Positions 1,969 through 24,172 of a stretch of DNA of 64,000 nucleotides are shown one piece after another. The translations under genes were made by a program, and so were the position numbers. How positions within the stretch are numbered: position 1 is the first letter of the stretch; each line of letters begins with the position of its first letter. The stretch comes from Anaerolineaceae bacterium (GTDB taxonomy: Bacteria > Chloroflexota > Anaerolineae > Aggregatilineales > Phototrophicaceae), in contig PABP01000014.1 in assembly GCA_002699585.1 (NCBI GenBank), positions 62,001 to 126,000 on the forward strand, in the 5' to 3' direction. The notes beneath the pieces were generated by a model. That model saw nothing but the letters and a program-made list of their open reading frames with translations. It was not told where the DNA came from and ran no database searches.

Positions 1969-2177
1969 TACTCTGATATGCGTTAGGGTGTTCATTTGCC
2001 CTGGGCCGTTGTTTTCGAGGCACGCCGCTGTGGGAACTCATGTCATGGCAGCGTGCTTTGGGGCTTTATTAGCATAATCTCGGTCCAATACGATAGAATC
2101 TGATGCATAGGCTCCCAAGCTGAAAACGCACATCATACATACAAGTCAACGCACCGTTGAATAAGGGCTGGAAATCT

Positions 2178-3011
2178 ATGTATATCCACGTTGGTTGCCA
2201 TATCCAGTATGAATGTCCACAGCCCACGCCGATGCTGTTTGTACTCAGCCCGTCTCATAACTCAAACCACTATCTTGCGGAAGAAAAACGTTCTGTGACG
2301 CCGTCGGTGTCGATTGACGAATATATGGACACTTACGGCAATATCGTCTGGAGATTGGTCGCACCAGAAGGGTCGTTCCAGATCGACTACGACGCTTTGG
2401 TCGCTTTGCCAGCAACGCCTGATCCTGTGTTCCCTGATTTGCCGAAGACTGCTGTTGAAAACCTGCCCAGCGATGTGATTATCTATACTTTGCCCAGCCG
2501 CCTGTGCCCCTCGGATATGTTCATTGACGAGGCGTGGCAGTTGTTTGGTGATGTACAAGGAGGATGGGCGCAGGTCCAAGCCGTTTGTGATTGGCTGCAT
2601 GACAATATCTTGTATGCACCGGATAGCACATCCAGTACAACCGCCTGGGATTCCTATCAACAGAGGCAGGGTGTTTGTCGGGATTTTGCGCATCTGGGCG
2701 TGTCTTTTTGCCGCGCTTTGAACTTCCCCGCGCGTTATGTGTGTGGCTATCTACCCGATATTGATGTTCCTGTTAACCCGACGCCTATGGACTTCCATGC
2801 CTGGTTTGAAGTGTTCATTGATGGCATCTGGTGTACCTTCGATGCACGGCACAATACGCCGCGTATCGGGCGTGTGCTTGTGGCCCGCGGACGCGATGCA
2901 ATTGATGTCGCCTTCGCAACCCTCTATGGCGGTGCGCAGATGACAACTCTCAAAGTATGGGCCGATCAAGTCGATGAGCAGTCAACGCTTGGCGCTTTAG
3001 CTAGCCAATAA
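2178..3011 (+). CDS. Transglutaminase-like cysteine protease-fold protein
   Basis: 277 residues from ATG 2178. A TTG seven codons upstream is possible but adds no conserved sequence, whereas MYIHVGC matches the way this family usually begins. The C-terminal half holds the transglutaminase-core triad: Cys in QGVCRDFAH (about residue 167), His in DFHAWFEV (about 207) and Asp in TFDARHN (about 222). The N-terminal half is the beta-rich domain that precedes the core in this family. No signal peptide is visible, so it is probably cytoplasmic. Such proteins act as amidases/peptidases or cross-linkers and often accompany alpha-E/circularly-permuted ATP-grasp genes, which are absent here. The gene is monocistronic. 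Confidence 0.87.
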   Translation: MYIHVGCHIQYECPQPTPMLFVLSPSHNSNHYLAEEKRSVTPSVSIDEYMDTYGNIVWRLVAPEGSFQIDYDALVALPATPDPVFPDLPKTAVENLPSDVIIYTLPSRLCPSDMFIDEAWQLFGDVQGGWAQVQAVCDWLHDNILYAPDSTSSTTAWDSYQQRQGVCRDFAHLGVSFCRALNFPARYVCGYLPDIDVPVNPTPMDFHAWFEVFIDGIWCTFDARHNTPRIGRVLVARGRDAIDVAFATLYGGAQMTTLKVWADQVDEQSTLGALASQ

Positions 3012-10603: not shown

Positions 10604-11343
10604 TGGTGTACTTCCTGTTGGTGTACTTCTTGTTGCTGAGTAACTTTCTTGAGGGTATCTTCGATGATCTGACCATCCTTCAGGTTGATGACACGATCCG
10701 CGTACTTTGTCACTGCGGGATCATGCGTCACGATGAGGACGGTTTTTTTCTGATGGGTACACAATTGACGCAGCATCCGCATGATGTTCTCGCCAGTTTT
10801 GCTGTCGAGTGCGCCGGTGGGTTCATCCGCCACGATGATGGGCGGATCATTATATAGGGCACGGGCAATGGCGACGCGCTGTTGCTGACCGCCCGATAGT
10901 TGGTTTGGGCGATGGTGTAGGCGCTCGCCTAAGTTGAGCATCCGTAGCAGAGAAGCGGCACGTTTATAGCGTACCGTGCGCGAGTGCTTGGCGAACATGC
11001 CAGATAGCATCACATTTTCAATCGCTGTCATAGTCGGCACCAGATAGAACCCCTGGAATACAAAGCCGATCATGGCACCCCGCATATGGGCGAGCTGCTT
11101 CTGGCCCATCTGGTCCAGGCGCTTACCAGCAACATAAACCTGCCCGGATGTGGGTACATCCAAGCCGGTGAGGCTATACAGCAATGTGCTCTTGCCAGAG
11201 CCGCTGGCACCCATAATGACAGCAAACTGGCCTGCTGGAACAGCAATATCAACGCCATTGAGTGCCTTGACGACTTGATCGCCAAGTTCAAAGTGCTTAT
11301 AGATACGTCGTCCAGCGATAATGGTTTCTCTTGTAAGGTCCAT
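10600..11343 (-). CDS. MacB/LolD-type ABC transporter ATP-binding protein
   Basis: 247 residues, a full stand-alone nucleotide-binding domain. Walker A is GASGSGKST (about residues 44-52), signature LSGGQQQRVAIARAL, Walker B IIVADEPTGALDS and H-loop VTHDP, all intact and of the LolD/MacB class. The last eleven residues are a duplicated QQEVH unit produced by a 15-base tandem repeat at 10606-10635. The gene overlaps the TIG/CARDB gene by four bases. With that protein and the permease at 7074-8351 it should form a tripartite, mechanotransmission-type ABC system. Confidence 0.94.
   Translation of the reverse strand: MDLTRETIIAGRRIYKHFELGDQVVKALNGVDIAVPAGQFAVIMGASGSGKSTLLYSLTGLDVPTSGQVYVAGKRLDQMGQKQLAHMRGAMIGFVFQGFYLVPTMTAIENVMLSGMFAKHSRTVRYKRAASLLRMLNLGERLHHRPNQLSGGQQQRVAIARALYNDPPIIVADEPTGALDSKTGENIMRMLRQLCTHQKKTVLIVTHDPAVTKYADRVINLKDGQIIEDTLKKVTQQQEVHQQEVHQ
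10606..10635. repeat. Tandem 15-base repeat at the end of the ABC ATPase gene
   Basis: Two copies of GTGTACTTCCTGTTG / GTGTACTTCTTGTTG (one mismatch), at 10606-10620 and 10621-10635. On the coding strand it adds one QQEVH pentapeptide and places an AGGAAG sequence about 9-11 bases before the next gene's ATG, so the duplication also remodels a ribosome-binding site. Confidence 0.85.
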
Positions 11344-11483
11344 CCCTGTGGTGTCCCCTGTCCTCCGATATTCGCAATATGCGTTTGCCTACTATGCATT
11401 AAAGACGTTTATGAGGCATTATCCGTTCCGTTTAGCTATGTTGTTCTCAAAGAGGGTCTTCCGTGTTCGTGTGACCTTGAATG

Positions 11484-12575
11484 CTAGGGCAAGTCGATAC
11501 TATCCGCAGGCACGATAATTTCTTCTGAGCCAGAATCGTCGGTTACGGATCGCTCGCTTTGCAGTAGGGGGTCCATCTCGGTGTCTGGGCTATTGGACAG
11601 GTCTTGTTCATTGGGCATGTCACTACTACCGGGGCCCATCTCGCCAGGGATCATACCATCAGGGACCATTTGTTCAGGAAACATGCCATCCTGGGGCATC
11701 ATGCCACCTGGGAACATCTCCCCTGGGAACATCTCGGCTTCTGCTGAAGCTTCGGTTTCGAGCTGTTCATAGCTCTCGATGCTATTCGCAAACCCCAGCA
11801 TGACGACCCATACAGCCAAGACCATCAGCACAATCAGCGGATTGCCACGTAAGATCAGGCGGCTCCCCAGGAAGATCAGTGCCAGGTTCCATATCCAGAA
11901 CACCGTCAGCAGTGAAGCCAACGCATAGATGAAGCTCTTTAGGTAGATATTCATATCAGCGAATGCGGGCCACTCACTGAGTAAGCCAGAGAAACCTTCA
12001 GCCTGTATAGAGCCGCCGCCTGCAAGGAAGGCCAATTGCAGCAGCGCCATTAAAGCTAGCGGCAAAGTTGCCCAAACCACAATCTGTAGATTGACGCCAA
12101 AGCGCGGGCTATGGCCTTTGAACATAGTCACTGCTGAGAGCAACAGCGTTAATACCGCCCATTGTAGCAATTGGGCAGCGATAGCAGACAGGGCCGTTGT
12201 CCAGTCAGCAGCAGGGTCATCGGCCTCAGATGTGCCCTCACCGCCGATGTTGCCGCCCATCATGCTTGGGTCAAAGGGCATTCCCCCTTCACCAAACATT
12301 TCACCCTCCATCATGGGGGGGACATTGATGTCTTGGGGTGCACTATCTACTGCAGGGGCACGCATCTGTAATGTGTTGGCTGCCACGATCACCAAAATGA
12401 GAAGGGCCATCCACAATGTATGTTTCGACATACGCTGTACATCAAACGTCATGAAGAATTCAATCGGACGCGTGATGACAGCTATGATATCGCCCAAAAA
12501 TCCACGCGGTGGCAGGTCATTATCATTAAAGAAATCTGGTGTGGCGATGTGTTGTTGTTGTGACGTGGCTGTCAT
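11484..12575 (-). CDS. Yip1-domain membrane protein with Met/Pro-rich tail
   Basis: 363 residues. After a short N-terminus with the Yip1 lead-in (DIIAVITRPIEFFMTF), about five transmembrane helices follow (first at about 52-70, the rest between about 130 and 262). A Gly/Met-rich insert lies after helix 1. The C-terminal 100 residues are soluble and repeat MFPGEMFPGGMMP-type units (Met, Pro, Gly, Asp/Glu), then an acidic Ser-rich end. Yip1 proteins of bacteria are of unknown function, and here the gene is codirectional with the MacB-like operon (140 bases upstream of it). The Met-rich tail could bind a soft metal, but composition is the only basis. Confidence 0.8.
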   Translation of the reverse strand: MTATSQQQHIATPDFFNDNDLPPRGFLGDIIAVITRPIEFFMTFDVQRMSKHTLWMALLILVIVAANTLQMRAPAVDSAPQDINVPPMMEGEMFGEGGMPFDPSMMGGNIGGEGTSEADDPAADWTTALSAIAAQLLQWAVLTLLLSAVTMFKGHSPRFGVNLQIVVWATLPLALMALLQLAFLAGGGSIQAEGFSGLLSEWPAFADMNIYLKSFIYALASLLTVFWIWNLALIFLGSRLILRGNPLIVLMVLAVWVVMLGFANSIESYEQLETEASAEAEMFPGEMFPGGMMPQDGMFPEQMVPDGMIPGEMGPGSSDMPNEQDLSNSPDTEMDPLLQSERSVTDDSGSEEIIVPADSIDLP

Positions 12576-12893: not shown

Positions 12894-13502
12894 TTAAGTT
12901 AACGTGTCGTGTAAGGCTTGTTGGACCTTGGCCAGGTCATCAGGGGTGTTGACGTTCATAAACGAGTGCAAAGCGGGGTCGATGGCCTTGAGTGCCGTTT
13001 CCTGGATCTTTGCCACACGCACTTTTTCATGCAGTAGACCGATTTTTAGCTGTCCCTGCTCGATTTGTTGTCGCATGATTGGCGACATATTCTGGCTATA
13101 CACGGCACACAGATTTTCAGGCCGAGTACCGACAACGGGTACCACAATGTCGTGACCGGGCGCCTTATCAATCAAGTATTGCAGCAAGTCCGGTTGCAGC
13201 AGTGGCATATCACAGCCGACACACAGCGTATAGGGCGTCGTGCTGTAGCTTAGGGCGGTGTAGATGCCCCCCAGTGAACCATTCCCAGGCAAAACGTCTG
13301 TGTACGCAGGCAGTTGAAAAGTGGCGTAAGCCTCCGGCGTGTTGGTGATGAGGATAGTGAGCAATTGCAGGGCCTGAACCCGTTCGATGACGTGCTGAAT
13401 GATAGGCTTACCATCCAATTGGACGAAGCTCTTGTTGGTGCCCATCCGACGTGACTGCCCGCCTGCCAGAATCGCAACTGTGCATAACGATGTTTGATTC
13501 AA
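12894..13502 (-). CDS. mobA: Molybdenum cofactor guanylyltransferase MobA
   Basis: 202 residues. The nucleotidyltransferase P-loop-like start AILAGGQSRRMGTNKSF, the substrate segment GSLGGIYTAL and the metal-binding VGCDMPLLQPDLL identify MobA, which joins GTP to Mo-molybdopterin to make the guanine dinucleotide cofactor. Length matches the family (about 190-200). The gene is last in the long minus-strand series, 41 bases after mobB. The only clear client in the window is the DMSO-reductase-type catalytic subunit encoded upstream, which needs bis-MGD. Confidence 0.93.
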   Translation of the reverse strand: MNQTSLCTVAILAGGQSRRMGTNKSFVQLDGKPIIQHVIERVQALQLLTILITNTPEAYATFQLPAYTDVLPGNGSLGGIYTALSYSTTPYTLCVGCDMPLLQPDLLQYLIDKAPGHDIVVPVVGTRPENLCAVYSQNMSPIMRQQIEQGQLKIGLLHEKVRVAKIQETALKAIDPALHSFMNVNTPDDLAKVQQALHDTLT

Positions 13503-13543
13503 TTTGGCTGACCTCGCTTCACGGCTACAATTGCTCCTGTGTG

Positions 13544-14050
13544 CTACGAAATGGCTTTGATGCCAAAGGCATACACCTCGATGAAATCCGCTATTTCGTG
13601 GTAATCATCCAACTGAAAAATGGGCACATCAACTGCAATGGAAGCGTCCGTTGCCAGGGCGATGCGCTGCTCCGGCGAACCGATCATATCCAGGCTGTTG
13701 GCAGACCGCACGACCTCTATTGAGGGCTTGTTGGATTGTTTATAGCCTTCAACCAGGATCATATCGACATCGGTCATGGACGCCGTGATTTCATCCAGCT
13801 CGAGTTCGCGCTCCAACTGGCGATAAGACGCAATTTTATCCGGTGCGGCAATCACCACATGCTGGCTGCCTGCCTGGGCGTGTCGCCAGCTATCCTTGCC
13901 CGGTATGTCAATGTCAAAGCCCGCATGCGAGTGATGCTTGACGGTCCCAACGGCATGGCCGCGCCCGGATAGCTCGGCGATGAGTTTTTCCAGCAAAGTC
14001 GTCTTGCCGGACCCGGACTTGCCTATGATGGTAATTACAGGAATCGACAT
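13544..14050 (-). CDS. mobB: Molybdopterin-guanine dinucleotide biosynthesis adaptor MobB
   Basis: 168 residues from MSIPVITIIG. Longer upstream frames would run into the EcfT gene, and an AGAGAAA purine stretch precedes this ATG. The Walker A GKSGSGKTTLLEKL is at the N-terminus, then VGTVKHHSHAGFDID and the family motif DMILVEGYKQSNKPSIEVVR. MobB is a GTP-binding protein that assists MobA. It lies 17 bases after the ECF T component and 41 before mobA, which ties the ECF importer to cofactor metabolism by position. Confidence 0.93.
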   Translation of the reverse strand: MSIPVITIIGKSGSGKTTLLEKLIAELSGRGHAVGTVKHHSHAGFDIDIPGKDSWRHAQAGSQHVVIAAPDKIASYRQLERELELDEITASMTDVDMILVEGYKQSNKPSIEVVRSANSLDMIGSPEQRIALATDASIAVDVPIFQLDDYHEIADFIEVYAFGIKAIS

Positions 14051-14067
14051 GGTTTCTCTTTCGTTAG

Positions 14068-14799
14068 CTATAGCAGGTGCACCAGAGCCAGCACAATACA
14101 TGTAAGGATCATCAAGCCGATGCTGGCGCGGTCCAACGGGCCCTGTTCGATGGGAAACGGACGTGATTTTTCCGGGGAAAAAGCCCGCATTTCAGCCGCG
14201 AGTGAGACTTCTTCGGCCCGTTTTAAGGCGTTGGTGATGATCGTAATGACCAGCAGTTGGCAGCCACGCCAGCGCTGCCGACGCAGCCCACCGCGCATTT
14301 TGAGGGTATACCAGGCCTGTACTGCCGATGTTTCTAAGGCGGGCAGCAGGTTTAAGGCCACACCAACGGCGAATCCCAGTCCATGCAGGCCAAAACGCTC
14401 CAATAGTCCGGCCATGCTGGATATATCGACTGCACGGGTGAGGTTTTGCAGCCCAATAATCAGCACGATAAAGCGCACGGCAATCTGTAAGCCAACCGTC
14501 AGCCCTTCCGAGGAATACGTGACGCCTGCAAAGACGCTATCGTGCTCCCCCAGGAAGAAGATCGTCGGCACAACCAGCAGCAGCATCCAGATCAGCCAGC
14601 GCCAGCGCAATATGCGCCTGAACGGGTTGGGGTAAATGAGCGCAGACACCGACAGGCATAACACCCCGGCTACGATCACCACGTAGCCGGAGGTCAGCAT
14701 GATCATGCCGAGAACCCAGCCAAATATGGCCAGGTGCCCATAGGTTCCTAGTGATGCCTGTGAAGGACGCCTATATGTCAGGGTGATGTCAGCTCGCAT
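14068..14799 (-). CDS. ECF transporter T component (EcfT/CbiQ family)
   Basis: 243 residues with four to six hydrophobic segments (about 25-55, 68-85, 105-125, 140-160, 225-242). The EcfT coupling region is present as the two Ala-Arg-Gly-like helices: LKMRGGLRRQRW and LAAEMRAFSPEKSR, close to the classic A-R-G motifs. It would be the shared membrane scaffold between the double ATPase (15879-17324) and the S component (15260-15898). Its start overlaps the last base of the lipoprotein gene, so translation is coupled. Confidence 0.87.
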   Translation of the reverse strand: MRADITLTYRRPSQASLGTYGHLAIFGWVLGMIMLTSGYVVIVAGVLCLSVSALIYPNPFRRILRWRWLIWMLLLVVPTIFFLGEHDSVFAGVTYSSEGLTVGLQIAVRFIVLIIGLQNLTRAVDISSMAGLLERFGLHGLGFAVGVALNLLPALETSAVQAWYTLKMRGGLRRQRWRGCQLLVITIITNALKRAEEVSLAAEMRAFSPEKSRPFPIEQGPLDRASIGLMILTCIVLALVHLL

Positions 14800-15251
14800 T
14801 AGCGCACAACTTCGATCTCGACGACCATGCGCACATTCATCTGGCCGCGTTCGCCGGGGACGACCATGCGCAGCGTGCCATCATCTTCTGACATAGGGCC
14901 ATCTGCCTGGGCATACGCCAGGATGACATCGTCGCGTGTATAGAGTGCAGGTTCATAGTTGACGCTGTAGCCGTCGCTGGCGACAGCCTTGATGGCGGTC
15001 ACATCATCCAACGAGATGCCAGCATCTTCCAGCAGGGTCGGCAGGGTGACACCGACATAATCCACGTCCTGGAAGTTGGCCGTTGTTTGCGGCAATGCCT
15101 GGAGCGCATCCAGCGAAATCGTCTGCTGACTATCGGCATCTGAGACAGTCAGGCTGCTGACCGCTTCTTCGGTAGCGGGTGTGTCTGAGGCGCAGGCGGA
15201 TGCCAGTGCGGCGACAATCAGCAGAATAATGAGTAGGGTTGTGCGTTTCAT
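14799..15251 (-). CDS. Lipoprotein with a molybdopterin-oxidoreductase-like (sulfite-oxidase-type) fold
   Basis: 150 residues. A lipoprotein signal peptide with cleavage before Cys20 (ALASAC) is followed by one domain of about 120 residues. LSLDALQALP-like, YVGVTLPTLLEDAG, VASDGYSVNY and LRMVVPGERGQMNVR stretches resemble the small form of the sulfite-oxidase-type molybdopterin-binding domain. The Cys that ligates Mo in true oxidases is not seen in the domain, so it is more likely a binding protein than an enzyme (inference). It sits between the S and T genes of the ECF importer, 8 bases after the S gene and overlapping the T gene, as a surface-exposed accessory. Fold assignment is by eye. 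Confidence 0.65.
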   Translation of the reverse strand: MKRTTLLIILLIVAALASACASDTPATEEAVSSLTVSDADSQQTISLDALQALPQTTANFQDVDYVGVTLPTLLEDAGISLDDVTAIKAVASDGYSVNYEPALYTRDDVILAYAQADGPMSEDDGTLRMVVPGERGQMNVRMVVEIEVVR

Positions 15252-15259
15252 GATGATGC

Positions 15260-15898
15260 CTATCCTTCGTATTGTTTTGAGGGTTGTTCAATGGTTGAGG
15301 CTGTGTAAGTTGGTTTTTTGCCTGTACGGCTTTGTAGCTCTTGCCCGATGCGCCATGCTGCCCATCCGGCGACTGTTCCCAGCGCCAGGTGAATGACGAT
15401 CATCAGCACGACGATGATCCAGGCGGCACTGGTATCAATGCCCAGGTAGCGGCTGCCTTGATCTAACATGTTCAGCCAGACCGAAACCAGCGAGCGCCCA
15501 AACAGCAGCGGGTTGGTGACGAAGGGCTGGGCCATCGCCCAGGCCACGCCCAGGCTGCCTGCGATCACAAACCAGCGGCGGCGCGGTTGGCCTAACAGCG
15601 ACAGGACCAGTTCAGCGATGAGGGCTTCGCTCAGGATGCCAACCATCGGTCCGATGATGATGCCACCCAGGCTGAACAGCTTTAAGATGGTGGCGATGAC
15701 GCCAATAAACAGGGTCGATCCACGCCGGGGCACATACAAGCGCCCGATCATGGCCACTGTCAATCCGATGCTGGCCAGCACCGCCCCACTAAAGGGGATA
15801 TTGAGCGATTTCAGGACTGTGCCGAGGCTCATTTCCACGATGCCCCATAGCACCCCGAAAACCGCTAATGTCGTTAGTTCACGTGTTGTAAATTTCAT
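15260..15898 (-). CDS. ECF transporter S component (substrate-binding membrane subunit)
   Basis: 212 residues with about six hydrophobic segments between residues 8 and 190 and a soluble tail. The start MKFTTRELTTLAVFGVLWGIVE, followed by repeated small-residue helices (GGIIIGPMVGILSEALIAEL), is in the style of ECF S components such as the ThiW/HmpT class. It overlaps the end of the ATPase gene by 20 bases. The substrate is not deducible from sequence. Position next to mobAB, a THEP1-like NTPase and DMSO reductase suggests a cofactor-related compound. Confidence 0.75.
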   Translation of the reverse strand: MKFTTRELTTLAVFGVLWGIVEMSLGTVLKSLNIPFSGAVLASIGLTVAMIGRLYVPRRGSTLFIGVIATILKLFSLGGIIIGPMVGILSEALIAELVLSLLGQPRRRWFVIAGSLGVAWAMAQPFVTNPLLFGRSLVSVWLNMLDQGSRYLGIDTSAAWIIVVLMIVIHLALGTVAGWAAWRIGQELQSRTGKKPTYTASTIEQPSKQYEG

Positions 15899-17324
15899 GC
15901 TGCAAACTTTCTGGTTCCTTAGCCTGATTCATAATTTGTCCGTTCTGGATCAGGGCGACATGCTTGACGTAGCGCTGAACCAGTTTTTCATCATGGGAAA
16001 TGAGCAAAATGGCGGTGCCGTTGGCATTCAACAGCAGCAAATAGTCCATCAACTGCTGGAGATGCCCCCAATCCTGGCCGAGCGTGGGTTCATCGAGGAT
16101 GATGAGCGCCGGACGCAGTGCCAGACAGGCCGCCAACGCAGTCCGCTGCTGCTGCCCGACGGAAAGCTGATTAGGGCGGCGGTCTGCCAGGGCGAGCAAA
16201 TCCGCTTGGGTCAACACTTGTCGGTGATTGTCCAACTCAAAACAGCCGTAGTTCTGTGGGGCAAAGGCCACTTCTTCATCGACCGAATCGGTAAATAACT
16301 GGTTGGCGGCATTCTGGAACAAGAGGGCTACATCCAGGCCGGCGCGATAGCGTTTACCGGCTGCGAAGCGAACTTTGCCTTTACGCGGTTTGAGCAGCCC
16401 CGCTGCGACCAGTGCCAGCGTGGATTTCCCCGCGCCATTTGGCCCAACCAGCGCCGAGAAATCGCCGGGGTACAGTTCAAAATTGGTCCCACGCAACACA
16501 TCTTTTTTACGATAACCCGCCCATACATTGTCCAGCACCAGTAAAGGCTGTCTATTTTGGGGTTCGGGAGCGTGCAATGAGGTAGGATTCTGTTCAATTA
16601 CGTCACCCAGGCCGAAGCGTGCCTGATAGCTGGGATTCGCCTGTAAGGCCTGTGGGGCGTCATCCAGAGTGATCTGACCATTCTCCATCAGCACAACCCG
16701 ATCCACATAAGGCAGGGTGGTTTCCAGCCGATGCTCAATCATGATGATCGTCATGCCATGATGGCGGCATAAATTGTCCAGCGTTTCAATGACGCGCTTG
16801 GCGTTGGGCGTATCCAGCGAGGCTAGCGGTTCATCAAGTACCAGCACGCGCGGTTTCATCGCCAGCACAGACGCAATGGCGACGATTTGCTTTTGTCCAC
16901 CGGATAGCTCGGCAGGGTTGTTGTCACGTAACGCGGTCAGGTTAGTCACCCGCATGGCCCACTGGATCCGTGCCTGTATATCCGCCTCGGATAGCCCCAG
17001 ATTGCGGGGACCGAAAGCGACTTCATCTTCAACATGCAAATGAAATAGCTGCGATTCCGGGTTCTGGAAGACAACGCCCACGTGCTCGGCGAGGGTAACG
17101 ACCGCATGCTCGCGTGTATCCAGGCCATCAATCGTGACGCTGCCGGACATGGTGGCCGCATCAATATGGGGGATCACGCCGCACAAGGCCTTGACCAACG
17201 TGCTTTTCCCGCAGCCGGACAAGCCCGATACCAGCACCCATTCACCGGGCTGGATATTGAGGGACACCTGGTTGAGGGCAGGTACATCGCCGTAACGCAC
17301 GGTCAGGTCGCGTATATTAATCAT
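15879..17324 (-). CDS. ECF transporter ATPase, fused double nucleotide-binding domains (EcfA1-EcfA2)
   Basis: 481 residues carrying two complete ABC domains in one chain. Domain 1 has GLSGCGKST, LSGGQKQ and VLVLDEPLASLD. Domain 2 (from about residue 260) has GPNGAGKST, a slightly deviant signature LSVGQQQ, and LIILDEPTLGQDWG. Separate EcfA and EcfA' genes are common; the fused form is known from several bacterial groups. It overlaps the NTPase gene upstream by four bases and the S component downstream by 20, so all are made together. It drives uptake through the T component at 14068-14799. Confidence 0.92.
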   Translation of the reverse strand: MINIRDLTVRYGDVPALNQVSLNIQPGEWVLVSGLSGCGKSTLVKALCGVIPHIDAATMSGSVTIDGLDTREHAVVTLAEHVGVVFQNPESQLFHLHVEDEVAFGPRNLGLSEADIQARIQWAMRVTNLTALRDNNPAELSGGQKQIVAIASVLAMKPRVLVLDEPLASLDTPNAKRVIETLDNLCRHHGMTIIMIEHRLETTLPYVDRVVLMENGQITLDDAPQALQANPSYQARFGLGDVIEQNPTSLHAPEPQNRQPLLVLDNVWAGYRKKDVLRGTNFELYPGDFSALVGPNGAGKSTLALVAAGLLKPRKGKVRFAAGKRYRAGLDVALLFQNAANQLFTDSVDEEVAFAPQNYGCFELDNHRQVLTQADLLALADRRPNQLSVGQQQRTALAACLALRPALIILDEPTLGQDWGHLQQLMDYLLLLNANGTAILLISHDEKLVQRYVKHVALIQNGQIMNQAKEPESLQHEIYNT

Positions 17325-17863
17325 GAGGATTCCTCAACGATGTGGAATACACGCGCAGACGCCCATCTTGACTGTGCTTCGGCTAGTAATGAGGGGCGAA
17401 TCACAACGAATGCCGACCGATAGCGCCCTTGATCAAGCAAGTCGATGGCTGCCTGGAAGCCGCCGCCCTGCGAAAATTCCAATGGGCCGATTTCGTCAAT
17501 CAGCAGGATGTCGCAATCAGTGGCGGCCTTGAGGAGAGCATTGCCCCAGGCGATCACCTGTGGGTCAAAATGCCAGCGACCGACGCGCAGTGTGTAATCT
17601 GGGCTGGCGGAATCGCTACCCAGCAGACGGCGTTTATCCGTGTATACATCAACCAGCCAGATGCCTGTTTTGATGCCATTTTCAAGTTGGGAGGGGCAGG
17701 AAATGCCACCTATCGTCAGGTTGGATTGGGCCGCATAGGCCACTAATGACGCGCACCATGACGATTTGCCAATGCCGCTGCGTCCAGTGACCAGCGTCAG
17801 GCCAGGGGAGAAAATTTGAGGATAGTCCAGCAGTGATGCTGGTATCGATTGCGAGAGCTGCAT
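17321..17863 (-). CDS. THEP1-like nucleoside-triphosphatase (DUF2478/NTPase_1-like)
   Basis: 180 residues from MQLSQSIPASLLDYPQ. This ATG has an AAAGGAG ribosome-binding site five bases upstream, better than the longer alternative. Walker A is GRSGIGKSSW, then a family-typical GGISCPSQLENGIKTGIWLVD, and the Walker B-like ILLIDEIGPLEF, as in THEP1/NTPase_1 proteins. Such NTPases are recurrent neighbours of molybdopterin-enzyme and ECF loci but have no settled in vivo role. First gene of the tight ECF-mob series. Confidence 0.82.
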   Translation of the reverse strand: MQLSQSIPASLLDYPQIFSPGLTLVTGRSGIGKSSWCASLVAYAAQSNLTIGGISCPSQLENGIKTGIWLVDVYTDKRRLLGSDSASPDYTLRVGRWHFDPQVIAWGNALLKAATDCDILLIDEIGPLEFSQGGGFQAAIDLLDQGRYRSAFVVIRPSLLAEAQSRWASARVFHIVEESS

Positions 17864-18049
17864 ATGTGCTCCTTTCCAATTCAACAGCAGGTCGCAATCT
17901 GCTGTATCGGGAGGCTATGGCGTTTCCACTCATAACCTGCCTCTTGCGGCGCAACTCGCTATACAAGCTGCTTTGCAAGAAGGGGGTCAGTTGGCCATGA
18001 CGCTGTGTGTTGCGCTTTAGGTCAAGTGACTCGGAGGACGGATAAAATT

Positions 18050-19324
18050 TTAGTTCGGTGAATCTACCGGGAAATGGCCTCCTTCATAGGGTTTGTTGTC
18101 AGCATTTCCTCGTAATTTTTCGCGGATTGCGGGTGACAATCGTGCCAACACGGCATCCGGTAAGCTCACGTCGGTTGGGTTCTCTCGCCGGGAGCGGCAA
18201 ACCGGGCACAATGTTTTATCCGGTGACCCGGCAAAGTGTGCTTTGCAGCGTTTGCACTGCTGCATCTGACCAGCATGCAATTTGAGGCGCGTCTCGTCTA
18301 ATACATCCCGCAGTGTGGGTGCGCCGTAAGTCTCCAGGGCATGGGTTTCGCAGTAGTCGATACATAAGTTGCAGTCGATACAGCGATGGGGTTCAAAGAT
18401 CACCATAAACTGCTCGTCGTCTTTAGCGACCTGGATGGCATCTGTCGGGCAGACGCGCTCACAGAGGCCACAGGCGTTACAGGTATCAGAAGCGACCAAC
18501 TGCACGAAACCATCACCAAATAGCCCCAACTCGTCGGGAATATCGGGATAAGGTTTGGTGAGCATGCGCAATACGGTCAACAAACGCCGCCGTTCACGCG
18601 GGAGCTGTTCCGATGGATCACCTTCATCTATGGCGTTGATGGCTCGCTGTTGCAATGCGCTTTCCGGGTTGAGCAATGACGAAAATAGGCCGCGTCGTGA
18701 CATGGGCGGGTTCTCGTTGTGATGTAACGGGCGCTCGACCCAATCGGATTGTGCGTCATATATCGGGACAATCGCGTCCGACAGCCCCAACACAGATAGA
18801 AGCTGCTGCGTCTCGGCTATGCATTGCTCAATATTGGGTTGCAAAACGCGCAGGGGGCAGTTGGCGCAGGCATCTAACCGTACGCGAACTTGCTCAACGC
18901 CGACGGCTAGCAGGCCAACAAAGGCCGATACGCCCAGGTCGGCCAGGCAGTTTTTCGTCTGGACAACCGAGTCCACTGCGGGAGCGGTGGTCTGCGGCGC
19001 GCTGTGATGCACGCAGGCAATATCGACGACCTGATGATCCGGCATGCTTTGCGTATTGAGCAGCAGTTTTTGAAAACTGTCAGGCCGCTCAAATACGCCC
19101 ACTGGGCAGGCATGTAAACACACACCGCATTTGATACATTGCTCAGCAGTCAGTTCAGGCAGGCCGCTATCCAGCCGGATGGCGCCTGTTGGGCACAAGG
19201 CAACACAACGATCACAGGTGGCGTACTTATTTTTCGTTCGCACGCATTGTGATGTCGTTTGCTGGATGGTACTTTGCTGTTGAAAGTGTGCCTCTGCTGC
19301 TACAGCAAGTTCGATCAGGTTCAT
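18050..19324 (-). CDS. Polyferredoxin with four [4Fe-4S] motifs, a Cys-rich middle domain and a zinc ribbon
   Basis: 424 residues. Two ferredoxin motifs lie at the N-terminus (Cys27/37/40/44 and 63/66/69/73) and two near the C-terminus (282/285/288/292 and 315/318/321/325). A C-terminal CxxC-12-CxxC ribbon (357/360/373/376) follows. Between the pairs a domain of about 200 residues carries Cys104, 126, 153, 156 and 168 and resembles the small electron-transfer domains seen in MvhD/FlpD-like proteins. No signal peptide, so cytoplasmic. Its start overlaps the chaperone gene's stop by four bases. A role in electron supply to, or maturation of, the reductase is inferred from position. Confidence 0.82.
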   Translation of the reverse strand: MNLIELAVAAEAHFQQQSTIQQTTSQCVRTKNKYATCDRCVALCPTGAIRLDSGLPELTAEQCIKCGVCLHACPVGVFERPDSFQKLLLNTQSMPDHQVVDIACVHHSAPQTTAPAVDSVVQTKNCLADLGVSAFVGLLAVGVEQVRVRLDACANCPLRVLQPNIEQCIAETQQLLSVLGLSDAIVPIYDAQSDWVERPLHHNENPPMSRRGLFSSLLNPESALQQRAINAIDEGDPSEQLPRERRRLLTVLRMLTKPYPDIPDELGLFGDGFVQLVASDTCNACGLCERVCPTDAIQVAKDDEQFMVIFEPHRCIDCNLCIDYCETHALETYGAPTLRDVLDETRLKLHAGQMQQCKRCKAHFAGSPDKTLCPVCRSRRENPTDVSLPDAVLARLSPAIREKLRGNADNKPYEGGHFPVDSPN

Positions 19325-20007
19325 GAGGATGCCAGAGCGTTGCTCTCTATTTGCCAGGTTTCCATTGTGTGGGCGATGGTGCCAGAGGCCAGCAAACTCA
19401 ATCCACGATAATAAGGCGTATTCGCTGCTTCAGCCACATCAGCCAGGAAGTCATGCGCCCATGTACAAACGTGATCTTTGAAAAAGCTGTCAATCGCTGC
19501 CAGCGACAGGTCGGTGTAATAGGGCTGCTCTGACCGAATGCCTTCTAAAGCAACCTGGCAGAGATGGGCGATGAACATCATTTCCAACCCAAAGTGGTCG
19601 TCCGGTTCATTGCGCTCTGTCGGAACGGCCATACCAAACTGACGATATAGCAGCCGCACTTGCAGCGTTTCTTTATCGAAAATCAAGCGCTCTTCATTGC
19701 AATATACCGATTCCCACGGTGGGGCTGGTAGGCGATTGGGGCCGATGAATAAGCGGGCAAAGTCCCGACGTACATCACCGAAGTCGTCAGCTTGCCAGTC
19801 TTGTAAAAATGCCTGCAAGGTTTCCAGGCCATTATGCATCTTATCGTTGGTGCTACCCAGCGGCCAATCCGCAAAGAGATCGTCCTGCTTCAATTGTTCG
19901 AGCAATTCGATGGTTGGTTTTTCAAAAAATGCCTTGCCCAAAAACCCGTAAGCAAGGTAGGTCGCAATGAGTCTTTCAGAGAGTGCGACTGTATCCGTAT
20001 TTTCCAC
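19321..20007 (-). CDS. TorD/DmsD-family redox-enzyme maturation chaperone
   Basis: 228 residues, all-helical, with the family's central motif LPAPPWESVYCNEERLIF and the second conserved block DDHFGLEMMFIAHLCQ. This family binds the Tat signal of DMSO/TMAO/nitrate-reductase catalytic subunits and delays export until the bis-MGD cofactor is inserted. The client is expected to be the Tat-signal-bearing subunit at 21716-24172. It lies 141 bases after dmsC, so it may have its own promoter. Confidence 0.88.
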   Translation of the reverse strand: MENTDTVALSERLIATYLAYGFLGKAFFEKPTIELLEQLKQDDLFADWPLGSTNDKMHNGLETLQAFLQDWQADDFGDVRRDFARLFIGPNRLPAPPWESVYCNEERLIFDKETLQVRLLYRQFGMAVPTERNEPDDHFGLEMMFIAHLCQVALEGIRSEQPYYTDLSLAAIDSFFKDHVCTWAHDFLADVAEAANTPYYRGLSLLASGTIAHTMETWQIESNALASS

Positions 20008-20148
20008 GACGTGTTACTCCAATACTTTCCATCTATAGAGAAAGCAACGATTAGAGTAAGCAAGAGGGATATAAATCCCTCTCACTTATCTCCATTTACA
20101 GACCATGCTGCGCTTGCGTTGATCTACATCGTTGACCTACATCTTGAT

Positions 20149-21075
20149 TTACATACCGATCCGTATCATGCTCTCGTAGAACAAGAAGCGACCCAGAATT
20201 TCTGAAATCAAGACGAAAGCAAACGCGCTATAGGCGAGATAACCTGTCATACGGGTCCTGGATTCGCTGGAGAGGCTTCGATACATGAATATCGAGAAGA
20301 TACCGGCCCCGACGAACAACAGGATCAATCGGAGAGCGAACAGTGCGCCACCCTGGTCAAGGATCAAGGAGATACTGGCCATTGCGGCCTCTGATCCTTG
20401 TTCTGCCAAATTGGCCAGGTACAAAGGAATCACGACGAACTGTACACCCAGTAATACGAGTGAGATCAGGACGATCCAGCGTAACGTCGTTGACAAGATG
20501 TCGAACTGGGTGTCCGAACTTGGCAAGTTATTTCTGCCGCGCAGATATTGATAGGTTAAGACAAAAGCAGACCCTACCGCTAGTGACCCAAGCAACAATG
20601 TAGTGATGAAGAATGTAACTACTGTTGCTGGCGAGTTCCATGCAGGGACGGTCGGCAGCAGATAGACCTGCGCCATTGACCACACCAGCAGCAAACCGAT
20701 AGCAGCTACAACCAGGCCGATGGTATTGCGGATGGTTGCCGTGCTGATCTTGCGCCACTGCATGAAGGCAAATACAGCACCACCGATGGTAAAGATGGCG
20801 GCTAAGGTGACTTCACGACTCAACCACGACGAACCGAGATTCGAGATGGCCCGAGGCGCATTTAGCGGGTTCCCTAGGTGGAGGAACGTGACCAGCATCG
20901 CCAGGATTACAATCGGGCCGATTGCCAGTAAGGCGCGATCACTCAGGGTGTCTGCCGCTTGGGCATCATAGCGTCGTGTTGCAAAAAAGTGGACGCCGCC
21001 CAGAATGACGAATGAGCCAACCGCCATCTGCATGACGGTTGTGAAGATAATCAGTGACCATTCATTGGCTTGCAT
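20149..21075 (-). CDS. dmsC: DmsC-family membrane anchor subunit
   Basis: 308 residues with about eight transmembrane helices and the DmsC-type start EWSLIIFTTVMQMAVGSFVI. GNPLNAPRAISNLGSSWLSRE matches the conserved loop of DmsC/NrfD-like anchors. It should take electrons from the quinol pool and pass them to the iron-sulfur subunit. It begins 5 bases after dmsB. A second, diverged copy lies at 25114-26037. Confidence 0.9.
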   Translation of the reverse strand: MQANEWSLIIFTTVMQMAVGSFVILGGVHFFATRRYDAQAADTLSDRALLAIGPIVILAMLVTFLHLGNPLNAPRAISNLGSSWLSREVTLAAIFTIGGAVFAFMQWRKISTATIRNTIGLVVAAIGLLLVWSMAQVYLLPTVPAWNSPATVVTFFITTLLLGSLAVGSAFVLTYQYLRGRNNLPSSDTQFDILSTTLRWIVLISLVLLGVQFVVIPLYLANLAEQGSEAAMASISLILDQGGALFALRLILLFVGAGIFSIFMYRSLSSESRTRMTGYLAYSAFAFVLISEILGRFLFYESMIRIGM

Positions 21076-21080
21076 GGACC

Positions 21081-21701
21081 TTATACCTCCTCTGGATTGA
21101 TGAGTTTGCCGGACGGTGAGCCGATGGGTTTAGCATTGTGATGCGGCTCAATAACGAGATTGGGTTCGGTAATATCTGCCGGGGGCAGCGGGGCAATCTC
21201 AGCGAGTTCACCATGCTCTGCCCGTAGCTCGTCAATATCACCAAAGAACAACGCGCGTGATGGGCAGGCGGCGACACAAGCCGGCGATTGGCCCTCATCG
21301 AGGTAGTCGTAGCAGAAGTTGCATTTGGTCATGACACCGACTTCTTCGTTGAACTGAGGTGCGCCGTAAGGGCAGGCCCACTCACAGTAACGGCAGCCGA
21401 TGCATATGCTCTCGTCTACCATGACGATGCCATCTTCACGCTGGTGCATAGCCTGCGTCGGGCAAACTTCTACACAGATCGGATTGGTACAGTGATTACA
21501 TGCGATGGACGTATAGTAAGCAAATACATTTTGCTCAACGGTGCCATCGGGATTGGTGACCCATTCACCACCTGTATACTCTGCGACTCGACGCCAATTC
21601 ACGCCTACTGGTAAATCAGACTTATCTTTACAAGCGACCTGACAGGCTTTACAGCCAGTGCATGCGGTGGCATTGAAGTAGAATCCCAATTTGTTAGCCA
21701 T
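21081..21701 (-). CDS. dmsB: DmsB-family iron-sulfur electron-transfer subunit
   Basis: 206 residues with the four-cluster pattern of DmsB/NrfC proteins: CTGCKACQVACKDKSDLP, CNHCTNPICVEVCPTQAM, CIGCRYCEWACPYGAP and CNFCYDYLDEGQSPACVAACP. All sixteen cluster cysteines are present. The C-terminal tail (EIAPLPPADITEPNLVI...) is the usual partner-contact segment. It lies 14 bases after dmsA. It carries no signal and would be exported with the Tat-tagged catalytic subunit. Confidence 0.94.
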   Translation of the reverse strand: MANKLGFYFNATACTGCKACQVACKDKSDLPVGVNWRRVAEYTGGEWVTNPDGTVEQNVFAYYTSIACNHCTNPICVEVCPTQAMHQREDGIVMVDESICIGCRYCEWACPYGAPQFNEEVGVMTKCNFCYDYLDEGQSPACVAACPSRALFFGDIDELRAEHGELAEIAPLPPADITEPNLVIEPHHNAKPIGSPSGKLINPEEV

Positions 21702-21715
21702 TTGAGTATTCTCCT

Positions 21716-24172
21716 TTATGCTTTCTCAACTTCAACAAGGATGGTGTGCATCGGGTCGCCTTTAGCCAGCGGCGATGGACGATAGCGTGTCAACACATTG
21801 GCACAACCTGCCTGATCGACGCCGTCTTCATCGGGTTCATACCAGGCACCCTCGGACAGATGGATCACGCCGGGGATGATGCGCGGCGTCACACGGGCAG
21901 GTACATGGGTGCGTCCGCGTCCGTTATAGACATAGACACGATCCCCATTTTCAATACCGCGTGCTTCGGCATCAATCGGGTTGATCCAGACTTCTTGTGG
22001 CGCGACTTCCTTCATCCAGGGCACATTGCCATAGGTGGAGTGGGTGCGCTGCTTATAGTGGGCGCTGATCATTTGCAGCGGATAAGTTTCCCGCAGCGGA
22101 TCACTGACGCCTTCCCACGTTTCCGCATAGATGGGCAAGCCGGTGATGACATCACCTTCTTCCAATTCCCACGTCTGGCCGATTTCATGCAGGCGCGAGG
22201 AGAAAATCTCTAGCTTGCCGGATGGCGTTAAGAGCGGGTTGGCTTCAGGGTCTTCACGGAATCCTTTATAAGCGACATAGGGATCGCCAGGGTTCGTGAC
22301 TTTGTAGATACCCATCTCACGGAAGGATTCAAAGTCCGGCCAATCGGGGTTGGACTTGCGGGTTTCGTCGATGCAGTAGCGTAGCCAGTCTTCGACCGTA
22401 CGACCTTCGGTGAATTCGTCTTCGACATCCAGCCGTTTGGCCAGTTCAGCACACATGTCATAGACATGCATTGTCTCGAACATTGGCTCGGCGGCTGGCT
22501 CACAGAAGATGTGATAGCCCATGTTGCTGGCATCCCCATTGACGGCGATGTCCATCTTCTCGAAGTTCATGGTATCCGGCAGCAGAATGTCGGACCACTT
22601 GGCACTTGGCGTCATGTGTACTTCGACAGAGACGATCATTTCGCACTTGGATTCATCACCAAGGATTTCGCGAGTATAGTTCACATCGGCGTGCTGGTTG
22701 ATGAGTGCGTTACCGGCATAATTCCAGATGAACTTAATCGGCACATCCAGTTTATCTTTGCCGATGACACCGTCTTTGAGTGCTGTCATTTCCGGGCCGT
22801 GATCGATGGCATCCGGCCAGTTGAACACCGAGATAGAGGTAGAAACAGGGTTGCTGAGCGTCGGGAAGCCGACCATCGAGATACTGAATGTGGATTCTCT
22901 CGCGCCAGTGCCACCGCCATGAATACCAATATTGCCGGTTAGGATGGACAGCATTGGGATCGCACGGCTGGTTTGTTCACCATTCGCTTGACGTTGTGGT
23001 CCCCAACCCTGGGTGATGAAGCACGGCTTCGTCAGGGCAATTTCTCGTGCCAGTTGGACGATCTTTGGTGCAGGGATGCCCGTAATGGTGGATGCCCATT
23101 CCGGTGTCTTGGCTGTGCCATCAGCACCCGTGCCTAGGATGTAATCACTGTAGCTATCTTCGTCCTCATAGCCTTCTGGCATGTGGGCTTTATCGAAGCC
23201 GACACAGTAATTATCCAGGAAGTCCTTGTCATGCAGGTCTTCAGTAATCATGACGTAGGCCAGCGCATTGATCAGGGCGGCGTCGGTGCCGGGGCGGATC
23301 GGAACCCACTCGTCGGCAGCCGTGACGGCCGTATCCGTATAGCGCGGGTCAATGACAATCATCTTCGCACCGCTGATCTTCTTGTAGTGCTGCAAACTGT
23401 AGATCATCCCGCCGCCGCTCATGCGCGTTTCGCCGGGATTGTTGCCAAAATAGACCATTAGCTTGCTGTTGACGATGTCTTCAATGCTGTTATTGGAGAC
23501 CCATGTATCGGCCCATGTATTGCCGAAGGTATAGGGCAACCCAGATTCAATTTGGGCGGCACTATAATCGCCATAGTGGTTGAGATACCCACCATAGCAA
23601 TTCATCAGGCGGGCGATGGGGGTGGCGCTTGGGGGCCATGACTTGGCAACAACGGCACCCAGCGTACCTGTACCGTAGTTCAGGTAAATGGACTCATTGC
23701 CATAGGTGTCGATCAGCTCTTTGAGCTTATCGGCGATCAGATCAAATGCTTCTTCCCAGGTGATCTGTTCAAATTCGCCAGATCCACGCGGGCCAACACG
23801 CTTCATGGGGTACTTGAGGCGGTCGGGATTATACATACGTTGACGGACAGAGCGGCCGCGTACACATGCACGAATCTGGTGATTGCCGAATTCGTCGTCA
23901 CCTAGATTATCGGTTTCGACACGAACGACAACGCCATCTTTGACGTGTAAACGAAGGGGGCAGCGGCTGCCACAGTTGACGACGCAAGACGACCAGACAA
24001 CACTTTCGTCCTCCTGCGCCAAGACACTCCCGATGCCTTGTTGGCCCGGAAGTTCGGCTAGATTACTCGCAACGACAGCTCCCCCACCGAATATCGCGCT
24101 CCATTTAACGAAGCTACGGCGGGTCATGATGGTGCTTGTAATCACATCGTTAAGAAATTCTTTGGCTACCAT
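21716..24172 (-). CDS. dmsA: DMSO-reductase-family molybdopterin catalytic subunit (DmsA-like), Tat-exported
   Basis: 818 residues. ATG 24172 is preceded by GGGAGG at 7 bases; a second Met lies at residue 16. Tat signal TRRSFVKW (Arg18-Arg19). A [4Fe-4S] site is formed by Cys63, Cys67, Cys71 and Cys103. The segment NCYGGYLNHYGDYS (residues 191-204) matches the DmsA signature and makes Ser204 the likely Mo ligand, as in DMSO reductase rather than Cys/Asp nitrate or formate enzymes. The C-terminal dinucleotide-binding domain (VWINPIDAEARGI, NGRGRTHVPARV) is complete. It reduces an S- or N-oxide or a related substrate in anaerobic respiration; the true substrate is not decidable. Confidence 0.92.
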   Translation of the reverse strand: MVAKEFLNDVITSTIMTRRSFVKWSAIFGGGAVVASNLAELPGQQGIGSVLAQEDESVVWSSCVVNCGSRCPLRLHVKDGVVVRVETDNLGDDEFGNHQIRACVRGRSVRQRMYNPDRLKYPMKRVGPRGSGEFEQITWEEAFDLIADKLKELIDTYGNESIYLNYGTGTLGAVVAKSWPPSATPIARLMNCYGGYLNHYGDYSAAQIESGLPYTFGNTWADTWVSNNSIEDIVNSKLMVYFGNNPGETRMSGGGMIYSLQHYKKISGAKMIVIDPRYTDTAVTAADEWVPIRPGTDAALINALAYVMITEDLHDKDFLDNYCVGFDKAHMPEGYEDEDSYSDYILGTGADGTAKTPEWASTITGIPAPKIVQLAREIALTKPCFITQGWGPQRQANGEQTSRAIPMLSILTGNIGIHGGGTGARESTFSISMVGFPTLSNPVSTSISVFNWPDAIDHGPEMTALKDGVIGKDKLDVPIKFIWNYAGNALINQHADVNYTREILGDESKCEMIVSVEVHMTPSAKWSDILLPDTMNFEKMDIAVNGDASNMGYHIFCEPAAEPMFETMHVYDMCAELAKRLDVEDEFTEGRTVEDWLRYCIDETRKSNPDWPDFESFREMGIYKVTNPGDPYVAYKGFREDPEANPLLTPSGKLEIFSSRLHEIGQTWELEEGDVITGLPIYAETWEGVSDPLRETYPLQMISAHYKQRTHSTYGNVPWMKEVAPQEVWINPIDAEARGIENGDRVYVYNGRGRTHVPARVTPRIIPGVIHLSEGAWYEPDEDGVDQAGCANVLTRYRPSPLAKGDPMHTILVEVEKA

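What the first reader, a model, noticed from the sequence alone, without database searches (positions are those of the whole stretch)
12894..17863. ECF importer with THEP1-like NTPase and a molybdopterin-fold lipoprotein, locked to mobAB
Seen: seven minus-strand genes with overlaps or very short gaps (-4, -20, 8, -1, 17, 41 bases): NTPase, fused EcfA1A2, S component, lipoprotein, EcfT, mobB, mobA. Known: ECF importers take up vitamins and metals; THEP1-like NTPases and MobAB are associated with molybdenum enzymes. Inference: the importer may move a molybdenum/tungsten-cofactor-related compound (oxoanion complex, pterin precursor or cofactor), captured outside by the lipoprotein, whose fold resembles the sulfite-oxidase Mo-pterin domain without the ligand Cys. 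The window has no moaABCDE or modABC, so such an uptake route would make sense. I know of no described system with this composition.
Basis: partly seen in the sequence, partly recalled or inferred. Interest (0 to 1): 0.82.

Follow-up and report, generated by a model that had tools for sequence, protein, structure and literature searches.

The report
Riboswitch-controlled importer for molybdenum cofactor
A bacterium of the phylum Chloroflexota carries a vitamin-type (ECF) import machine under an RNA sensor for the molybdenum cofactor, with a pterin-binding-like protein on the outside; some relatives sit in bacteria that seem unable to make this cofactor, so it may be a so far undescribed route for taking the cofactor up ready-made.

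Summary
The operon is real and as described. In 60 related loci, 34 have NTPase-EcfAA-led operons; 24 of the 33 of these with at least 200 bp upstream also carry RF01055. The S component is predicted to fold like ECF S components, the lipoprotein like the sulfite-oxidase pterin domain and PruR; 25 of 25 lipoproteins have no Cys past position 20. Recurrent neighbours or fusion partners are mobA/mobB; TonB receptors occur beside it in other phyla. Twelve of 60 host genomes (four near-complete, eight MAGs) lack moaA and moeA yet encode PF01568 (bis-MGD-type) proteins. Best reading: an ECF importer of molybdopterin or finished Moco, shut off by Moco. A role in Moco supply is near certain; the substrate is not. 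Molybdate/tungstate stays open, because related domains are fused to TupA-like and PF01497 binding proteins.

The parts
17853..18048 (-). Moco/Tuco riboswitch (RF01055); P1 contains the Shine-Dalgarno of gene 1; P3 present (the form tied to Mo rather than W in PMC2408646)
   Evidence: cmscan 51.7 bits, gathering score 36; only RF01055 match in the genome; fold with P3 and CUCC/GGAG P1 pairing, z -4.4
17321..17863 (-). P-loop NTPase, PF03266 (THEP1-like), first gene
   Evidence: 64.7 bits, cut-off 23.9; recurs in the clusters; fused to MobA or EcfT in some relatives
15879..17324 (-). Fused ECF ATPase EcfA1-EcfA2
   Evidence: TIGR04521/TIGR04520 over cut-off, two ABC_tran stretches
15260..15898 (-). 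S component (substrate-binding membrane subunit) of an unnamed family
   Evidence: no family over cut-off; model pLDDT 93.4, best match 5edl (Foldseek E 0.014, VIA Z 17.2); in 57 sequences W18, G19, E22 invariant, K73 in 55, E91 in 56
14799..15251 (-). Lipoprotein with SUOX-type pterin-binding-like domain, no Mo-ligand Cys
   Evidence: PF00174 47.6 bits; model pLDDT 89.9, SoxC 2xts Z 18.1, PruR 7kom Z 16.4; no Cys past position 20 in 25 of 25
14068..14799 (-). EcfT (CbiQ-type transmembrane coupling subunit)
   Evidence: PF02361 51.0 bits, cut-off 25; the only PF02361 match in the genome
13544..14050 (-). MobB (MGD synthesis adaptor GTPase)
   Evidence: PF03205 144.4 bits; TIGR00176 144.2, cut-off 76.2
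12894..13502 (-). MobA-like nucleotidyltransferase (MGD synthesis)
   Evidence: PF12804 113.1 bits; TIGR02665 110.1, below its cut-off 151.85
18050..24172 (-). Adjacent upstream cluster, a likely user of the cofactor: Fer4 protein, PF02613 chaperone, DmsC anchor, Fer4 protein, 818-aa molybdopterin oxidoreductase
   Evidence: Pfam PF01568, PF00384, PF04976, PF02613, Fer4; its last gene ends one base before the riboswitch

Best explanation
A group-I-like ECF importer devoted to the molybdenum cofactor. Outside the cell a lipoprotein with a pterin-binding SUOX-type fold catches a released pterin cofactor (molybdopterin, or Mo-molybdopterin). The complex of S component, EcfT and EcfA1A2 pumps it in with ATP. 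In the cytosol the NTPase and MobB hand it to MobA, which adds GMP to make the MGD form used by enzymes such as the DMSO-reductase-type one encoded next door. When the cell has enough Moco, the cofactor binds the leader RNA, P1 closes over the Shine-Dalgarno and the operon is shut. In this organism the importer would be a supplement (salvage), because moaA, moeA and modB are present; in some relatives it might be the only source. Shown: gene content, riboswitch family and position, predicted folds, conservation, genome inventories. Inferred: the substrate, the role of the NTPase, the direction of riboswitch control.
For: (1) RF01055 directly before gene 1, the only match in the genome, and before 26 of 60 related loci's operons, 24 of 33 NTPase-EcfAA-led ones with at least 200 bp upstream. 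(2) S model: 5edl Z 17.2, RibU 12.5, folate complex 7nnt 11.8. (3) Lipoprotein fold: SUOX Moco domain and PruR pterin-binding proteins. (4) phmmer neighbours in 60 loci: MobA 7, MobB 7, against moaA 1 clear and 2 weak, moeA 2, ModB 0, TupA 0; NTPase-MobA fusion in 3 of the 5 f20 (Dehalococcoides-like) genomes, G007/G020/G048; G030 and G090 have the NTPase unfused. (5) 12 of 60 genomes have neither moaA nor moeA, all 12 have PF01568 proteins; four of the 12 are single contigs at 99-100% completeness. A paper states that moaA, moaC, moeA are absent from sequenced Dehalococcoides (PMC13390414, passages). (6) TonB receptor genes in the clusters of a WOR-3, a Calditrichota and an FCB MAG, as expected for a large or scarce substrate.
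Against: No ligand was tested. This genome, and most hosts of the riboswitch-lipoprotein type, have moaA and moeA, so uptake is not needed there; the genomes without both lie outside that clade in the S tree. The f20 S proteins are very diverged (22-26% identity), the one such genome read whole shows no EcfT, D. mccartyi is grown in defined media (recalled), and Mo in OmeA is not confirmed (PMC6005880, passages). The other eight double-negative genomes are MAGs of untold completeness. The PruR site is said to be probably too small for Moco (PMC13259868, passages). SUOX-like domains are fused to TupA-like and PF01497 binding proteins, which points to metal uptake. Among S-fold matches the two transition-metal entries (Z 9.1, 8.8) tie with ThiT and BioY, so the fold speaks only mildly for an organic substrate. 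Free Moco is unstable in air (recalled). 9 of 33 NTPase-EcfAA-led operons show no riboswitch.
Confidence: 0.5

Rival explanations
1. The ECF complex imports molybdate or tungstate (or a Mo/W chelate); the SUOX-like lipoprotein is an oxoanion- or chelate-binding receptor. Moco feedback then makes sense as for modABC.
For: Moco riboswitches occur upstream of molybdate transporter genes (PMC2408646, passages). SUOX-like domains are fused to a TupA-like binding protein (L196, L119) and, behind a Moco riboswitch, to a PF01497 binding protein (L095). Most riboswitch-type hosts have moaA.
Against: The genome already has ModB over cut-off. Metal import alone is useless in genomes without moaA (19 of 59 show none) or without both moaA and moeA (12 of 60), if those absences are real. 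The best S-fold match, 5edl, is a vitamin-type S component (recalled), though metal-type entries tie with other vitamin ones lower down.
Confidence: 0.25
2. The substrate is a small pterin (monapterin/neopterin type) or another pterin breakdown product, caught by a PruR-like lipoprotein for salvage or signalling.
For: PruR structures are ranks 1-4 of Foldseek and reach Z 16.4; PruR binds small pterins and also lacks the ligand Cys (PMC13259868, passages).
Against: Small pterins are not Moco precursors in the known pathway (MoaA/MoaC start from GTP; recalled), so neither the Moco riboswitch nor MobAB would fit.
Confidence: 0.1
3. The substrate is an earlier Moco intermediate (cPMP or metal-free MPT), completed by the host's own later enzymes.
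For: Seven of 59 genomes show moeA but no moaA, the window's nearest S relative L036 (G401) among them; moeA lies near the operon in L041 and L058.
Against: Twelve genomes show no moeA either; missing genes in MAGs may be gaps. MoaC, MoaD, MoaE and MogA were not searched.
Confidence: 0.1

Closest known systems
Group-I ECF vitamin importers (YkoEDC, BioMNY type; names recalled)
   Same: Dedicated S, EcfT and EcfA genes in one operon; fused EcfA1A2; S fold matches 5edl (YkoE, name recalled), RibU, folate S component
   Different: S family matches no curated family over cut-off; Moco riboswitch; an extra lipoprotein with SUOX fold; NTPase and MobAB in the operon
PruR pterin-binding proteins / SUOX-family Moco domain
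   Same: Fold, N-terminal export signal, missing Mo-ligand Cys (PMC13259868)
   Different: Lipoprotein tied to an importer, not to DcpA signalling; 16-25% identity to PruR in the fold alignments
Moco-riboswitch regulon (moa, mod, Moco enzymes)
   Same: RF01055 aptamer over the RBS
   Different: Controls an ECF importer, a target class not named in the passages read of PMC2408646 and PMC3766115
ModABC / TupABC molybdate and tungstate importers
   Same: Plausible shared physiology and Moco feedback; a SUOX-like domain is fused to a TupA-like protein in L196 and L119
   Different: Different transporter class; no ModB or TupA homologue within the 60 loci by phmmer at E 1e-8

Membership tests
ECF importer (group I) | Paired EcfA ATPases | tested here: met
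   TIGR04521 352.7 (cut-off 330), TIGR04520 346.1 (315), two domains
ECF importer (group I) | EcfT coupling protein | tested here: met
   PF02361 51.0 bits, cut-off 25
ECF importer (group I) | S component fold, encoded in the same operon | tested here: met
   Model pLDDT 93.4; 5edl Foldseek E 0.014, prob 1.00 (no match at E <= 0.001), VIA Z 17.2 over 183 residues, rmsd 6.2; 17 of the top 18 VIA rows are S components or ECF/metal-transporter entries by title or name, row 3 (Z 12.1) is an ammonia monooxygenase chain
ECF importer (group I) | ATP-driven uptake of a substrate | not testable with these tools
   needs a transport assay
Known S families in Pfam/NCBIfam | Match over curated cut-off | tested here: not met
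   best PF09819 18.0 (cut-off 25.2), TIGR02185 17.9 (76.45)
Moco riboswitch RF01055 | Score over the gathering threshold and aptamer fold | tested here: met
   51.7 vs 36 bits; fold with P1-P5
Moco riboswitch RF01055 | Ligand-dependent control | not testable with these tools
   needs a reporter assay
SUOX-family molybdoenzyme | Fold of the Moco domain | tested here: met
   2xts Z 18.1, 119 residues, rmsd 1.9
SUOX-family molybdoenzyme | Mo-ligand cysteine | tested here: not met
   no Cys past position 20 in 25 of 25 lipoproteins
PruR | Fold, exported, no Mo-ligand Cys | tested here: met
   7kom Z 16.4, 7rkb Z 15.0; Cys only up to position 20
PruR | Pterin binding | not testable with these tools
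   no ligand assay
THEP1-type NTPase (PF03266) | Family score and P-loop | tested here: met
   64.7 vs 23.9 bits; G32, K33, D123, E124 invariant in 9 of 9
ModABC-type importer | ModB-type permease in the operon | tested here: not met
   0 of 60 related loci by phmmer; the window operon encodes EcfT instead

The most novel reading that the evidence does not exclude
A bacterial importer for the molybdenum cofactor itself (molybdopterin or Mo-molybdopterin): an ECF transporter with its own pterin-binding receptor, feedback-regulated by the Moco riboswitch. It would let some bacteria, Dehalococcoides-like organohalide respirers perhaps among them, live as Moco scavengers, so that Moco would be a shared good in anaerobic communities as vitamin B12 is.
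Probability: 0.42. Interest if true: 0.9.

Novelty: new variant of a known kind. Interest (0 to 1): 0.74.

Why it matters
Moco is generally held to be made in each cell (recalled); going by listings and passages, none of the paper searches here showed a bacterial importer for it (open-licence papers only). A Moco-feedback ECF importer would explain how genomes without moaA and moeA could still fill molybdenum or tungsten enzymes, would give a function to an unnamed S-component family and to SUOX-fold lipoproteins, and makes a directly testable genetic prediction.

Tried and rejected
Vitamin importer with a vitamin riboswitch: rejected, the only leader RNA found is RF01055. Auxotrophy of the window's own organism: rejected, moaA, moeA and modB are present. 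L087 as a further riboswitch case: withdrawn, my coordinate mapping had joined two different contigs. A riboswitch core variant (CTCCGATC for CTCCGAGC) as a mark of the ECF operons: dropped, the copy in L108, on a contig with moaA about 2.3 kb further on, also differs. The claim that the Dehalococcoides-like molybdoenzyme beside the S gene is OmeA: dropped, it is TtrA-like (468.9 bits against a cut-off of 1750) and another PF01568 protein exists. A CbiM-like cluster near moaA in L197 was judged a nickel or cobalt system by eye and left.

moaA absence alone as a test: weak. In the 400-genome phylum sample 19 of 46 S-negative moaA-less genomes also have PF01568 over cut-off, so single losses are often assembly gaps; the double loss separates better (12 of 18 S-positive against 3 of 19 S-negative, p 0.0025). 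Limits: rows are not phylogenetically independent; the S-positive set includes other phyla; S-negative rests on a one-protein search that may miss far relatives; 30 of the 50 moaA-less handles were got by elimination from the list, 20 were listed. Within good genomes of the phylum sample moaA is missing in 4 of 10 S-positive and 24 of 274 S-negative ones, p 0.011, but the four are one family (f20). THEP1 and molybdenum in print: no paper. The only PDB sequence match of the NTPase is chance-level, E 0.096; none for the S profile.
Full report
What is there. The seven-gene minus-strand operon at 12894-17863 is confirmed with the stated gaps. Pfam and NCBIfam give NTPase_1, ECF ATPase 1 and 2 in one chain, CbiQ-type EcfT, a partial Oxidored_molyb domain behind a lipobox, MobB and a MobA-like protein. 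The S protein reaches no curated cut-off.

The missing piece. Rfam finds a Moco/Tuco riboswitch (RF01055) at 17853-18048 on the minus strand, 51.7 bits against a gathering score of 36. It is the only RF01055 match in the 6.7-Mb genome. The RNA folds into the five-stem aptamer, z -4.4 against shuffles; P1 pairs CUCC with the GGAG of the Shine-Dalgarno of gene 1, whose ATG follows at 17863. P3 is present; Regulski et al. tie P3-containing RNAs to Mo and P3-less ones to W metabolism (PMC2408646, passages). By folding, the leaders of L076 and L198 lack P3.

Conservation. A 400-genome scan of the phylum with the S protein found 11 genomes, the own one among them. One scan of the GTDB contigs with a six-sequence alignment found 54 loci, four of them on contigs already held (equal contig lengths and gene positions); with the ten loci from the phylum scan (L023-L032) 60 distinct loci remain, the window not counted. 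Gene calls by profile give NTPase-EcfAA-led operons in 34 of 60; others are cut by contig ends, start with EcfAA, or have other orders such as S-EcfT-NTPase (L073, L079, L081, L084), MobA-S-EcfT-NTPase (L077) or S-NTPase(-MobA) (L028-L032). The riboswitch stands before gene 1 in 24 of the 33 NTPase-EcfAA-led operons with at least 200 bp upstream and in two EcfAA-led ones (L036, L076). Of these 26, three come from locus scans and 23 from a scan of 49 genomes mapped to the loci: 18 confirmed by an exact 40-base probe, five (L043, L052, L054, L061, L066) by coordinates plus the aptamer core and Shine-Dalgarno end. Not found in L035, L055, L058, L068, L078, L080, L083, L088 at gathering score, nor in L062 (stricter filters).

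Folds. The lipoprotein model (25 sequences, pLDDT 89.9) matches the sulfite oxidase/SoxC Moco domain (2xts Z 18.1, rmsd 1.9) and the PruR pterin-binding proteins (7kom Z 16.4, 7rkb with neopterin Z 15.0). None of the 25 has a Cys past position 20, so the Mo ligand is missing, as in PruR (PMC13259868, passages). That review says the PruR site probably cannot take Moco; whether this one can was not tested. The S model (57 sequences, pLDDT 93.4) matches S components: Foldseek 5edl E 0.014, prob 1.00, nothing at E 0.001; VIA 5edl Z 17.2, RibU 12.5, folate 11.8, ThiT 9.7, BioY 9.1, transition-metal entries 9.1 and 8.8, and one unrelated chain at 12.1. In the S alignment W18, G19 and E22 are invariant, K73 stands in 55 of 57 and E91 in 56 of 57.

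Company. By phmmer at E 1e-8 within the 60 loci (822 kb): MobA 7, MobB 7, FmdE 9 (one weak), a SAM methyltransferase 10, moaA one clear (L051) and two weak, moeA 2 (L041, L058), ModB 0, TupA 0, and a molybdenum or tungsten enzyme (six queries) in 14. Three of five f20 genomes have an NTPase-MobA fusion, the other two a separate NTPase; L084 has an EcfT-NTPase fusion. TonB receptors lie in the clusters of L076 (WOR-3), L077 (Calditrichota) and L084 (FCB); L068 has a further similar ORF. In the window a DMSO-reductase-type cluster lies just upstream.

Who can make Moco. Of 59 S-bearing genomes besides the own one, 40 match moaA (39 over cut-off). Of 60 with the own genome, 48 have moeA and 57 have PF01568. 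Twelve have neither moaA nor moeA, and all twelve have PF01568: G007, G020, G030, G048 (single contig, 99-100% complete; Dehalococcoides-like is my inference from size and gene content) and eight MAGs of untold completeness. For Dehalococcoides a 2026 paper says that moaA, moaC and moeA are absent (PMC13390414, passages). Control: moaA is present in 350 of 400 phylum genomes (256 of 284 good ones). Of the 50 without (20 listed, 30 by elimination), 46 have no S match; 19 of these 46 have PF01568 over cut-off, and 16 of the 19 keep moeA. So the double loss with PF01568 is 12 of 18 among S-positive moaA-less genomes and 3 of 19 among S-negative ones (p 0.0025). The rows are related, and the double-loss genomes lie outside the 27-row riboswitch-lipoprotein clade to which the window belongs. 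In G020, read whole, no EcfT was found, so its S protein would act alone or do something else; a phmmer with the own ModB gave only weak matches there (24 and 21 bits).

Reading. A riboswitch for Moco before a transporter, in 27 operons including the window, makes a role in Moco supply close to certain (about 0.93, my estimate). The substrate is inferred. For MPT/Moco speak the pterin-binding fold, MobA/MobB as recurrent companions, TonB receptors, and relatives in genomes that seem unable to make or load MPT; the S fold speaks for it only mildly. One case is striking but weak: in G446, without moaA and moeA, the only RF01055 match stands, with a short ORF between, before a 350-aa protein with a hydrophobic N-terminus (by eye) and a faint resemblance to the lipoprotein profile (E 0.042 in the ORF set); its S gene lies near an AOR gene. 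For molybdate/tungstate speak fusions of a SUOX-like domain with a TupA-like protein (L196, L119) and with a PF01497 protein behind a Moco riboswitch (L095), and that most riboswitch-type hosts have moaA. Of the three genomes with these fusions, two (G425, G426) have an ECF operon without the lipoprotein; in the third (G447) the contig ends inside the S gene.

Known or new. Every part but the S family belongs to a named family; the combination, and an importer under RF01055 that is neither ModABC nor TupABC, was not seen in the papers searched (open-licence texts only). I read passages, not whole papers, of PMC2408646, PMC13119186, PMC6005880, PMC13390414, PMC3766115 and PMC13259868; the rest as listings.

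Noticed in passing
L196:3977-5344 (-), L119:2639-3319 (-, cut), L095:1893-3119 (+): SUOX-like domain fused to a TupA-like (PF12849) binding protein in L196/L119 and to a PF01497 binding protein behind a Moco riboswitch in L095. In G425 and G426 the ECF operon lacks the lipoprotein; in G447 the contig ends too early to tell.
   Followed up: partly
L198:1305-1423 and 1625-2677 (+): In Calditrichaceae genome G446 (no moaA, no moeA found) the only RF01055 match precedes, with a short ORF between, a 350-aa protein faintly like the SUOX-type lipoprotein.
   Followed up: partly
L024:8517-9137 and 10959-11591 (-); 9 and 10 of 60 loci: FmdE-family gene after EcfT and a SAM-dependent methyltransferase between EcfAA and S in a subgroup of the operons; roles unknown.
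   Followed up: partly
L024, L045, L047-L050, L052-L054, L066 leaders: Aptamer core reads CTCCGATC (CTCCGACC in L051, L085; CTCCAAGC in L043) instead of CTCCGAGC; it might shift ligand specificity.
   Followed up: partly
L028:8249-9403, L029:8435-9571, L030:8156-9301 (-); L084:6180-7298 (+): NTPase-MobA fusion in three Dehalococcoides-like genomes and EcfT-NTPase fusion in an FCB MAG: they tie the THEP1-like NTPase physically to both ends of the proposed route.
   Followed up: yes
G428:C119:14286-14410 and 14466-14597: Two Moco riboswitches in tandem.
   Followed up: no
L078: A contig labelled Actinomycetales carries an operon of the Anaerolineae type (58% S identity, no riboswitch found); probably misbinned or transferred.
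   Followed up: no
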